Of a stretch of DNA of 64,000 bases, positions 1,656 to 8,822 are shown in pieces; position 1 is the first letter of the stretch, and each line of letters starts with the position of its first letter. The notes beneath the pieces were generated by a model. That model saw nothing but the letters and a program-made list of their open reading frames with translations, did no database searches and was not told the origin of the DNA. Source of the stretch: Archangium primigenium (lineage in GTDB: Bacteria; Myxococcota; Myxococcia; Myxococcales; Myxococcaceae); contig NZ_JADWYI010000001.1 in the NCBI RefSeq assembly GCF_016904885.1, positions 2,356,001 through 2,420,000 of the forward strand, given 5' to 3'. A program made the position numbers and the translations under genes.

Positions 1656-4600
1656 TCACCACGAGGCCAGGGTTTCGTTCACCTCCGACCCCTCGCTTCC
1701 CAGGTCCTCCAACCTCCGTGACACCAGCCCGAGCAGTTCCCGCCAGGCGCTCTGGAGGAAGAAGTGGTCGCCGGGCAGCAGGTGCAGCGAGAAGGCCCCC
1801 TGGGTGTGCTCCGCCCAGGCGGCGAGCGCTCCCCGTCGCGCGAGCGGATCCTCCCGACCGCCGAAGACCGCGAGCGGGCATTCCAGGGGCGACTCCTCCT
1901 CATGGCGGTACGAGGCGCATACCTTCAGGTCCGCCCGCAGCACTGGCAGGTGTTCCTGGAGGAGCGCCACGTCACCCGGTCCCCGCCGGGTCACGCCGTG
2001 CCGCGCCAGCTCCGTGAGGAGCGCCTCGTCGCTCAGGGTCTCCAGGGTCAGGGGCGTGGGCGGCCGGGACAGGTGGGGCGCGGGCTCTCCGGAGACGAAC
2101 AGGGCCTCCAGTCCGGCTCCCCGCCGCCGCAGCCGCCGCGCGAGCTCGAAGCCGAGCAGGGCGCCCATGCTGTGGCCGAAGAAGACGGTGGGCACATCCA
2201 GGTACGGGTGCAGCTCGTGCTCCAACTGGTCGACGAGCGCCGTGAAGTCCTGGTGGGGGGGCTCGTCGCTCCGGGTCTCCCGTCCGGGCAACTGCACGAG
2301 CCCGAGCTCCGTGTCGTGTGGCAGGGCCTCGGCCCAGCGCCGGAAGGACGTCGTGCCCGCGCCCGCGAAGGGGAAGCAGAGCAGCCGCCGCTGGGCGCGG
2401 ACCCTCGGCTGGGGGCGCACGAGGACCGACGCGGGAGACCGTCGCGGAAGCGGGCGCTCCGGGCGGGGCGGCTCGGGCAGGAAGTCGCCCTCGCGCAGGT
2501 CCTGGACGCTCTGCTTCACCGCCGTCACCAGTGCCTCCACGTCCTCGTCCGTGTGGGCCGTGGAGAGGAAGAAGCTGCGCCCCTCCCAGACGTAGATGCC
2601 CCGGCTGAGCAGGTGGAAGAAGAACAGCTCCAGGTGCCGGGGCAGCTTGAAGCGGAAGAGCGAGCCGAAGTGGACGACCTCCAGCGGCACCTGGCCCTCC
2701 TGGAAGAAGGCGTTGAGGCGCTCGGCCAGCTTCGCCGTGCGGGCGTTCAGGCGTTCCTGGAGCGCTGGGCCCTCGTCCTTCAAGCGCCGCAGCGTGGCCA
2801 CCGCCGCCGCCATGGCGAGCGGGTTCTTGTTGAAGGTCCCCGCGAACCAGACGGGCTCGGTGCCCGGCTCCGAGTCGTCACCCTCGCGGTAGGCCCCGCC
2901 GTCGATCGCGTCGAGGAAGCGCGCCTGGCCCGCCACCACGCCGATGGGCATGCCTCCGCCGATGATCTTCCCGTAGGTGACCAGATCCGCCTGGACGCCG
3001 AACAGGGCCTGCGCGCCGCCCTGATGGCAGCGAAAGCCCACGAGCACCTCGTCGAAGACGAGCGCGATGCCCTTCTCCCGGGTGAGCGTGCGCAGGTCCT
3101 GGAGGAACGCGCGGGGTTGGAACTCCGGGCGCCGGCCCTGGACGGGCTCCACCAGCACGGCGGCCAGGGAGTCCGCGTGCTCGCGGATCAACTCGAGCGA
3201 GCGTGGGTTGCCGTACTCCAGCACCAGGACGTCCTGCTCGAGGCTCGGCGGCGCGCCATGGGTCATGGGGATGGTGCCCAGCACGCCATCCGAGGAGCCA
3301 TGGTACGAGCCCGAGAAGAGCGCCACCTTGGGGCGTCCCACCACCCCGCGCGCCAGGCGCAGCGCCGTCATCACCGCCTCGGTCCCCGAGCCGCAGAACG
3401 CCACGCGCTCCACCCCCGTCAGCGCACACAGGAGCCGGGCCGCCTCGGCGGCGTGATCGGCTTGAGGGCCGATGGAGACGGTGCGCTGGAGTTGGGCCTG
3501 GAGGGCCTCGGTGAGCCAGGGCGCCGCGTGTCCGAACAAGTGGACGCCGAAGCCCATGGCGAAGTCGACGTAGGCGTTGCCATCGGCATCCCAGAAGCGC
3601 GCGCCCTCGGAGCGCACGCCGACGAGCGGGTAGCACATGGCCTTCGTCCAGTGCCATTGGGCCCGGAGCGCCGCGGGGAAGGTCGACCGGAAGCCCGCGG
3701 AGGCGCGGGTGTCGGCCAGGTGGATCTGCGACTCCCGCCGACGCGCCTGGGACGTGGGGGTGCGCCGCGTGTAGCGATCGATGAGCGCGTCCAGGTGGGC
3801 CCGCTGGCGCGGGGTGAGTTCGCGCACCGGCTCGGGAGTCCCCGGCGTCGGCCGCGCGTCGGCCAGGTGCGTGGCCAGCGCGTCGAGCGTGGGCAGCCGC
3901 TCGAACACGTCCCGCAGGGACAGCGGCACGTGGAACTCGCGCTGGATGCGCTGCAGGCCATCGATGAGGACGAGGGAGTCCACTCCCAGGTCGACGAGAG
4001 GCGTGTGGGCATCGACCGCGGAGGGCTCCACGGCGAGCAGCTCCGCCATCAGGGTCCGCAGCCGGAGGGAGATCCAGGCCCGGCGCTCGGTGGGGCTCTT
4101 GGGGGGCGGCGGCACGGGCATGGCGGGCACCTCGGGGGGCCGAGGGGGTTCGCGTTCCTGGCGCTCTCCGAGCCAGAAGCGGCGACGCTGGAAGGCGTAG
4201 GTCGGCAGGGGGGAAGGGACGCCCGGCGTGCTCCGGCCCAAACGCTTCCACTCCACCGGGGCGCCCTGGACATGCAGGGCGCCCAGGCTCTCGAGCATGC
4301 GCTTCCAGTCCTCGCCCGGACGGCCCAGGGACGGCAGCAAGGACGCGGGAGCCCCACTCGCGCCGCGACGCGCGAGTCCCAGCAGGGTGGGCTGGGGACC
4401 GATCTCCAACCAGACATCGAGGCTCATACTCACGAGCCTGTCCATGGCCGCGCCAAACAGCACGGGCTCGCGGAGCTGTCGTCGCCAGTAGGCTGGCGAA
4501 CCGAGCGTTCCATCCTCGAGCGCCGTCCCGGTGAGCGAGGAAATCATCGGCACCCGGGGGGCGTTGAAACGAACCCCCGAGGCCACCTGCTCGAAGGCGG

Positions 4601-7600: not shown

Positions 7601-8822
7601 CGTCGGCCACGGACGGACCGGCGAGCCAGATCTCCCCCTCGTGCCCATCGGGGCAGGGCACGCGGGTCTCCGGCTCCACGATGACCAGCCGCTGCGTGTC
7701 CCAGCACTGGCCAGAGCCGATGCGCGGCCGGGTGTCCTGACGGCCGGGCAAGGGGAGGGCATGGGGCTCGGGTGGCTCACCGCGGGGCCCGCCGGTGACG
7801 AACAGGGTGGCCTCGGCGAGGCCATAGCAGGGGAAGAACGCGCGCCGCTGGAAGCCGCACGGCGCGAAGGCCTCGACGAAGCGCTGGAGCGTCTCGGTCT
7901 GGATGGGCTCGGCGCCATTGAAGGCCGTCTCCCAGCAGCTCAGGTCCAGTTCGCCGCGCTGCTCGGGCGGGATGCGGCGCACGCACAGGTCGTAGGCGAA
8001 GTTGGGACCGCCGCTGAGCGTGGCGCGGTGGCGGGAGATGGCTCGCAGCCAGCGCGCGGGCCGCTGGAGGAAGTGCAGCGGCGACAGGAGGACGCAGGGC
8101 AGGCCCCGGTACAGCGGGTGGAGCACGTTCCCGATGAGTCCCATGTCGTGGTACAGCGGCAGCCATCCCAGACAGCGGGTGTCCGCATGGGTCTCGAAGG
8201 CGCGCCCCATGAGTGCCTCGTTGCTCATGAGGTTGGCGTGGCTCACCCGGACGCCCTTGGGGCTCGCCGTGGAGCCAGAGGTGTACTGGAGGAAGGCCCA
8301 GGCCTCCCGGACGGGCGCGGGTCCCTTCCAGAGGTCCCCACCGCCACCGTTGACCGTATCCGTGGCCAGCCAGCGGGGCGCGGCGAGGTCCGGCGTCTGG
8401 GCCAGCAGCTCGGGCGTGAGGTCCAGGAGCGCCTGGGTGGTGAGCACGGCGCACGGCTGACAGTCGGCCACGATGCTCCGCAAGCGCGGCAGCGTGCGCG
8501 CCAGGCGCATGGGATCGGGCGGATAGGCGGGCACCGCGATGACGCCCGCGTAGAGGCAGCCGAAGAAGGCGGCGATGAACTCCAGGCCCGGCGGGTAGAG
8601 CAGCAGGGCCCGGTCCCCCGGGACGCAGTGGCCCAGGAGGCTCGCGGCGATGGCCCGGGCCCGTGCATCCAGCTCCGCGTACGTGAGGCGCTGCTCCTCC
8701 TGCTCGCCATCCACGAGGAAGAGGTAGGCCTGGGCCTCGGGCTGGTGCTGGGCGCGGTGCGCCAGCACGTCCACGAGGGTGGCGTGCGCGTCGAGGTTCT
8801 CGGGAGCGGATGCGGGCGTCAT
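1656..8822 (-). CDS. Hybrid megasynthase FAAL-ACP-KS-AT-ACP-aminotransferase-TE
   Basis: A 2,388-residue single-module synthase. Domains in order: fatty acyl-AMP ligase (about 1-580), ACP with GLDSK serine near 617, ketosynthase from about 673 with DTACSSS cysteine near 842 and [15 protein letters not shown] histidines, acyltransferase with GHSLGEY near 1295 and HAFH (malonyl-CoA type), second ACP with GVDSL near 1614, a class III PLP aminotransferase with TYGKIIGGG lysine near 1951, and a type II-like thioesterase with LPGRE and GHSMGA near 2218. No ketoreductase, dehydratase, condensation or adenylation domain is visible. The order matches the first part of mycosubtilin/iturin synthases, where the aminotransferase converts a beta-ketoacyl-ACP to beta-amino. 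I infer that it activates a fatty acid, extends it once, aminates it and releases a beta-amino fatty acid. The start is the ATG 16 bases after the diiron enzyme stop; the frame stays open upstream, but those 80 residues are a shadow. Confidence 0.92.

What the first reader, a model, noticed from the sequence alone, without database searches (positions are those of the whole stretch)
1656..8822. Stand-alone beta-amino fatty acid synthase (FAAL-ACP-KS-AT-ACP-AMT-TE)
The order of domains is that of the first module of iturin-type synthases (fatty acid activation, one malonyl extension, amination of the beta-keto group), but here the chain is cut off by a terminal thioesterase with no condensation or adenylation domain after it. 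That implies a free beta-amino fatty acid as product rather than a lipopeptide. AT motif HAFH indicates malonyl-CoA. I do not know a described stand-alone enzyme with this order.
Basis: partly seen in the sequence, partly recalled or inferred. Interest (0 to 1): 0.85.

Follow-up and report, generated by a model that had tools for sequence, protein, structure and literature searches.

The report
Stand-alone beta-amino fatty acid synthase operon
A myxobacterium carries one large enzyme that should activate a fatty acid, lengthen it by two carbons, put an amino group on it and release it, and beside it sits an iron-oxygen enzyme that probably oxidises that new amino group; it is an unusual, unstudied variant of the first step of iturin-type lipopeptide factories.

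Summary
On the minus strand (8822 to 1656) one 2388-aa protein reads FAAL-ACP-KS-AT-ACP-AMT-TE with every catalytic motif intact. The nearest NRPS condensation domain in the genome is about 0.68 Mb away. Among 60 MycA-like AMTs in the order, 12 in a Pseudomonadota sample and 50 plasmid records, no other AMT runs into a TE.

The synthase is the second gene of a tight four-gene operon. [quoted passage not shown] This HDO subfamily is rare (4 of 195 phylum genomes). In all seven loci whose contigs extend far enough, it lies beside an AMT-PKS, in three architectures and two phyla. Two Burkholderiales clusters also share the membrane protein.

My best reading: a beta-aminoacyl chain is made, oxidised by the HDO most likely at nitrogen, and released by the TE as an N-oxidised (perhaps isoxazolidinone/isoxazolone-type) beta-amino fatty acid. 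Amine formation is well supported by homology. The HDO reaction and the product are inferred. UndA/BesC-like C-C cleavage or desaturation is the main rival. New variant of known kinds.

The parts
8839..9678 (-). [quoted passage not shown] Candidate ligands by conservation: E66 (E/D), E112, H133, E185, H215, D224/D226, H227
   Evidence: Weak PF14518. AF2 model pLDDT 84, pTM 0.83. Foldseek hits BesC, CADD, UndA; VIA-align HrmI Z 21.1, CADD 21.1, UndA 20.0. Family alignments. Stop is 16 bp before the synthase ATG, with a ribosome-site-like GAGG between
1656..8822 (-). Gene 2: FAAL-ACP-KS-AT-ACP-AMT-TE synthase, 2388 aa
7125..8795 (-). FAAL domain (fatty acyl-AMP ligase)
   Evidence: PF00501 E 2.5e-68; best NCBIfam ligase models are fatty-acid--AMP ligases
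6852..7067 (-). ACP1 (GLDS)
   Evidence: PF00550, two stretches
5289..6806 (-). KS domain with linker
   Evidence: PF00109 E 2.5e-95, PF02801
4260..5210 (-). AT domain, malonyl-type HAFH at 4623-4640
   Evidence: PF00698 E 2e-65
3864..4064 (-). ACP2 (VDSL)
   Evidence: PF00550
2493..3635 (-). AMT: MycA-type PLP aminotransferase, PLP-Lys in TYGKIIGGG at 2952-2978
   Evidence: PF00202 E 6.8e-54; MycA 6kfm E 2.4e-139
1725..2387 (-). TE domain, type-II-like (RifR/RedJ relatives), Ser-Asp-His present
   Evidence: PF00975 E 1e-42; best solved relatives 6vap, RifR 3fla, 3qmw
719..1615 (-). Gene 3: alpha/beta hydrolase, monoacylglycerol-lipase-like, GHSAG nucleophile
   Evidence: PF12146/PF00561; 6qe2 E 5.8e-12; 39 bp after the synthase stop
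33..722 (-). Gene 4: ferric-reductase/MsrQ-like membrane protein; start overlaps the stop of gene 3 (ATGA)
   Evidence: PF01794 weak, MsrQ weak; relatives directly upstream of the HDO in Variovorax and Ramlibacter clusters, 29-31% identity

Best explanation
A four-gene operon makes a small oxidised beta-amino fatty acid. FAAL adenylates a free fatty acid and loads it on ACP1. KS and AT extend it once with malonyl-CoA on ACP2. The MycA-type AMT converts the 3-oxoacyl group to 3-aminoacyl. The HDO then oxidises this molecule, most likely at the new amine (hydroxylamine, oxime or nitro), either on the carrier or after release; the ferric-reductase-like protein may supply electrons. The TE cuts the chain off; an N-hydroxy-beta-aminoacyl thioester could also close on itself to an isoxazolidin-5-one-type ring. 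Shown by sequence: domain order, intact catalytic residues, operon structure, and the recurrent HDO/AMT-PKS linkage. Inferred: order of steps, N as the site of oxidation, electron donor, ring closure and final product.
For: Domain content and motifs. AMT is MycA-like along its whole length. TE is of the hydrolytic type-II kind. Tight gene spacing and overlap. The HDO subfamily occurs in 4 of 145 genomes of the order and 4 of 195 of the phylum, and in only 1 of 399 sampled genomes around Variovorax, which is Variovorax itself. On every contig long enough to tell it is beside an AMT-PKS: G000, Corallococcus sicarius, G076, Ramlibacter x2, Variovorax, Burkholderia multivorans; Myxococcus vastator is split between contigs with matching ends. 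Clusters of the second kind also carry a membrane-protein homologue next to the HDO, a stand-alone TE relative and a FAAL, so nearly the same gene set recurs in another phylum. Characterised HDOs act on amino or fatty acids and include N-oxygenases SznF, HrmI and RohS (PMC13108848, PMC13232832). HrmI ties for the best structural match. Myxobacterial PKS-NRPS products with isoxazole-bearing fatty chains exist (PMC8868522); an N-oxidised beta-amine is a plausible precursor of such a ring.
Against: HDO reaction type cannot be read from fold or ligands: HrmI, CADD and UndA tie, and the review states that HDOs with identical primary ligands diverge in function (PMC13108848). Every HDO-linked cluster whose start could be read also has a FAAL, so a fatty-chain substrate is equally compatible with the gene content. 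More distant HDO relatives in Acinetobacter stand alone without a PKS. I could not confirm that the larger myxobacterial clusters are those of myxofacycline or myxadazole (papers not held). No product is known.
Confidence: 0.48

Rival explanations
1. The HDO acts as a C-C lyase or desaturase (UndA/BesC/VarO/MboA-like), on the fatty acid before loading or on the beta-amino fatty acid, so the operon makes an unsaturated amine, terminal alkene, enamine or methyl ketone.
For: BesC and UndA are among the best Foldseek hits and UndA lies within about one Z unit of HrmI. UndA works on medium-chain fatty acids (PMC13108848). HDO-linked clusters start with a FAAL.
Against: The HDO was always found with an AMT where contigs allow, never with a FAAL-PKS lacking one. 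In the larger clusters a separate desaturase and an acyl-CoA-dehydrogenase-like domain are already present beside the HDO.
Confidence: 0.27
2. One reading: the product is simply the free beta-amino fatty acid; HDO, hydrolase and membrane protein are neighbours with no role in it.
For: Synthase alone is sufficient for it. Type-II-like TE relatives are hydrolytic.
Against: Tight gene spacing and overlap, and recurrence of HDO, and in two clusters of the membrane protein, with AMT-PKSs in another phylum.
Confidence: 0.2
3. It is a lipopeptide loading module that works with an NRPS encoded elsewhere; the TE only edits.
For: Its closest AMT relatives are lipopeptide-type AMT-C proteins, and its TE is related to editing type II TEs.
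Against: Nearest condensation domain about 0.68 Mb away. No C domain follows the AMT, and no C, A or AMT homologue was found 20 kb downstream.
Confidence: 0.04

Closest known systems
MycA/ItuA/BamA first module (mycosubtilin, iturin, bacillomycin D)
   Same: FAAL-ACP-KS-AT-ACP-AMT order and homologous MycA-type AMT
   Different: There the chain passes to C-A-PCP; here a type-II-like TE follows the AMT and no NRPS is nearby
Cystomanamide-type myxobacterial lipopeptide synthases (3-amino-9-methyldecanoyl lipopeptides; PMC9581180)
   Same: Family of beta-amino-acyl myxobacterial lipopeptides; AMT-C proteins of the order are the closest AMT relatives (55-58% identity)
   Different: Those relatives are ACP-KS-AT-ACP-AMT-C-A; no fused FAAL or TE and no HDO. 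That they are the cystomanamide genes themselves was not tested
Cyanobacterial olefin synthase OLS (FAAL-ACP-KS-AT-KR-ACP-ST-TE; PMC11837247)
   Same: Single-module, fatty-acid-initiated PKS ending in a TE, one C2 extension, small lipid product
   Different: KR and ST there, AMT here; TE here is of RifR/RedJ type
Heme-oxygenase-like diiron oxidases (UndA, BesC, CADD, HrmI, SznF, PolF)
   Same: Predicted fold and a plausible His/carboxylate ligand set
   Different: Own subfamily, at most 19% identity to solved members, linked to AMT-PKSs
Larger HDO/AMT-PKS clusters in Corallococcus, Myxococcus, Burkholderia, Ramlibacter and Variovorax; possibly of the myxofacycline/myxadazole isoxazole kind (from memory, unconfirmed)
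   Same: FAAL, KS-AT, AMT, HDO; two of them also the membrane protein and a stand-alone TE
   Different: Those have further extension, C domains, ligases, and in one kind ACAD and desaturase; the window operon is the minimal form

Membership tests
MycA-type beta-aminotransferase | Full-length homology to the MycA AMT domain | tested here: met
   6kfm E 2.4e-139 over residues 10-460
MycA-type beta-aminotransferase | PLP-binding Lys and phosphate-cup residues | tested here: met
   [19 protein letters not shown] and AGTF align with MycA
MycA-type beta-aminotransferase | Transaminates a 3-oxoacyl-ACP | not testable with these tools
   Needs an enzyme assay
Iturin-type lipopeptide synthase | FAAL-ACP-KS-AT-ACP-AMT order | tested here: met
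Iturin-type lipopeptide synthase | Condensation domain/NRPS follows the AMT | tested here: not met
   TE follows; nearest C domain about 0.68 Mb away
Olefin synthase (OLS) | Single-module FAAL-PKS ending in TE | tested here: met
Olefin synthase (OLS) | KR and sulfotransferase domains | tested here: not met
   No KR or ST family among the Pfam matches
Type II thioesterase (RifR/RedJ) | Sequence kinship and catalytic triad | tested here: met
   3fla E 7.2e-40; GHSMG/D/GDH
Type II thioesterase (RifR/RedJ) | Stand-alone protein | tested here: not met
   Fused to the AMT
HDO superfamily | Heme-oxygenase-like fold | tested here: met
HDO superfamily | 3H/3C or 3H/4C diiron ligand set | tested here: inconclusive
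   Conserved E66(E/D), E112, H133, E185, H215, D224/D226, H227, but the stretch 212-225 with the last ligands is modelled at pLDDT below 50
HDO N-oxygenase (SznF/HrmI/RohS) | Oxidises an amine nitrogen | not testable with these tools
   Context only
Myxofacycline/myxadazole-type isoxazole cluster | Identity of the cluster with the published one | not tested
   Papers not held; only the product classes are cited in PMC8868522

The most novel reading that the evidence does not exclude
A minimal two-enzyme route, an AMT-PKS-TE plus a dedicated HDO, converts a fatty acid into a 3-alkyl isoxazolidin-5-one or isoxazol-5-one (or a beta-nitro or beta-hydroxylamino fatty acid). The HDO would be the founding member of an N-oxygenase subfamily specific for beta-aminoacyl polyketides, explaining how N-O heterocycles are installed in a wider set of myxobacterial and Burkholderiales fatty polyketides.
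Probability: 0.3. Interest if true: 0.75.

Novelty: new variant of a known kind. Interest (0 to 1): 0.52.

Why it matters
It is a one-module synthase for beta-amino fatty acids that ends in its own release domain, so it could be tested, or used to make beta-amino acids, without an NRPS. Its operon also points to an unstudied HDO subfamily that travels with beta-aminating PKSs in two phyla. That makes a question directly testable: does this HDO put oxygen on the new amine, and is this how N-O bonds enter fatty polyketides?

Tried and rejected
NRPS partner outside the window: rejected for the neighbourhood (nearest C domain about 0.68 Mb away; no hit in 20 kb downstream). AMT-TE as a common architecture: rejected for what was sampled. 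Origin of the AMT: the tree puts the window AMT with lipopeptide AMTs (96/93) apart from the other HDO-linked AMTs (99/99), which would mean two independent HDO/AMT pairings; but the AU test does not reject one clade (p 0.145), so I do not claim it. Membrane-protein homologues elsewhere in the order stand away from PKSs, so the gene family itself is not diagnostic. Confirming that the larger clusters make myxofacycline or myxadazole failed because the papers are not held. Acinetobacter DtpC (PMC13232832) was considered as the stand-alone HDO relative; its ligand positions (E143, H153, H232) do not fit the residue spacing of the Acinetobacter homologues found here, but its sequence was not compared. 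Structure of the whole synthase was not attempted (over the size limit).

Full report
What is there. The window lies in a myxobacterial chromosome (9.47 Mb contig; the family also contains Corallococcus sicarius and Myxococcus vastator) at 2,356,001-2,420,000. The reported gene is real, on the minus strand, ATG 8822 to stop 1656, 2388 aa. Pfam gives FAAL-ACP-KS-AT-ACP-AMT-TE, and all catalytic motifs are present. The AMT matches the solved aminotransferase domain of mycosubtilin synthase along its whole length (E 2.4e-139) and is 49% identical to bacillomycin D BamA. The TE is closest to type II thioesterases such as RifR.

Is the order unusual? In the order I looked at the domain after the AMT for 60 MycA-like AMTs. 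Most are followed by a condensation domain, a group by a luciferase-like monooxygenase, and a few end the protein or contig. Only the window's is followed by a TE. None of 12 AMT hits in a sample of 369 genomes around Variovorax and none of 50 plasmid records covers the TE part. The closest full relatives are ACP-KS-AT-ACP-AMT-C-A lipopeptide proteins. Stand-alone FAAL-PKS-TE proteins do exist in the form of olefin synthase, with KR and ST instead of AMT (PMC11837247). No condensation domain lies within about 0.68 Mb.

The operon. The synthase is the second of four closely packed genes: an HDO (9678-8839), then 16 bp, the synthase, then a short gap of about 40 bp, a lipase-like hydrolase (1615-719), and, overlapping by ATGA, a ferric-reductase/MsrQ-like membrane protein (722-33). 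The HDO has only weak sequence matches, but its model (pLDDT 84, pTM 0.83) clearly has the HDO fold. HrmI (N-oxygenase), CADD and UndA (decarboxylase) tie. The stretch that should hold the last ligands is modelled poorly; apo-HDOs are reported to be disordered there (PMC13108848).

Comparative evidence. This HDO subfamily is rare: 4 of 145 genomes in the order, 4 of 195 in the phylum, 1 of 399 in a Burkholderiales-side sample, namely Variovorax itself. A scan of 84,980 species genomes by two conserved peptides gave seven loci. The same genome has many other PF14518 proteins, so it is the subfamily, not HDOs in general, that is rare. In every locus whose contig extends far enough (window, C. 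sicarius, G076, Ramlibacter x2, Variovorax, B. multivorans) an AMT-PKS is adjacent. Two further contigs (M. vastator, one Ramlibacter) break before the AMT position but have the same KS-AT next to the HDO. There are three architectures: (A) hotdog-FAAL-ACAD-ACP, desaturase, HDO, KS-AT, ACP-AMT-C, ACP, usually a ligase, PKS; (B) FAAL-ACP ... KS ... ACP-AMT-C, membrane protein, HDO, ligases, with a stand-alone TE nearby; (C) the window operon. The membrane protein of B is related to gene 4 of the window (29-31% identity). Distant HDO relatives in Acinetobacter stand alone.

Mechanism. FAAL, KS-AT and AMT should give a 3-aminoacyl-ACP2; this follows from established MycA chemistry and intact residues, but no enzyme was assayed. 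The HDO is found with the AMT in all clusters of this group that could be read, so its substrate is most economically the new amine: N-oxygenation to hydroxylamine, oxime or nitro. Ring closure of an N-hydroxy-beta-aminoacyl thioester to an isoxazolidin-5-one is chemically simple but purely inferred. Isoxazole-bearing fatty polyketides are known from myxobacteria (PMC8868522); from memory they come from Corallococcus and Myxococcus, genera that hold architecture A, but I could not confirm that A is their cluster. The rival is a lyase/desaturase role, since the clusters also have a FAAL.

Phylogeny. The other seven HDO-linked AMTs form a clade (99/99), while the window AMT groups with lipopeptide AMTs (96/93). 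This suggests the HDO was paired with AMT-PKSs more than once, but the AU test does not reject a single clade (p 0.145).

Verdict. Observation confirmed; interpretation partly supported and extended; new variant of known kinds. The product is unknown and the decisive tests are experimental.

Noticed in passing
window 13170-14130 (-): IS630-like transposase in two overlapping frames (DDE_3 and HTH parts), about 3.5 kb from the operon.
   Followed up: partly
L050:19317-20780 (Ramlibacter MAG): A PEP phosphomutase and a TPP enzyme (phosphonopyruvate-decarboxylase-like) lie downstream of the AMT/HDO cluster, hinting at a phosphonate-bearing product.
   Followed up: partly
L053:11962-12810, L054:9968-10828, L055:9962-10828: Acinetobacter carries stand-alone relatives (31-35% identity) of the window HDO; where annotated (L053, L055) next to TetR regulators, without any PKS. 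Function unknown.
   Followed up: partly
window 34602-38864 (-): Radical SAM/SPASM protein near a FecCD permease and a periplasmic binding protein.
   Followed up: no
G000:C2:913-1413 and 2948-3448, C1:2517960-2518460: Three PF14518 (HDO-like) matches with identical score, two in opposite orientation on contig C2: possibly a repeated element carrying an HDO gene.
   Followed up: no
G000:C1:3337040-3382529 and 6314266-6339081: NRPS open frames of 10330, 6512 and 9219 codons.
   Followed up: no
L007-L010, L013, L015, L016, L058, L077: Myxobacterial AMT-PKSs followed by a luciferase-like monooxygenase, as in cyanobacterial 3-amino-2-hydroxy acid pathways.
   Followed up: partly
L052 (Burkholderia multivorans), L049 and L048 (Ramlibacter): The architecture-A cluster of Corallococcus/Myxococcus is also present in Burkholderiales (L048 only in part), suggesting transfer between phyla.
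   Followed up: partly
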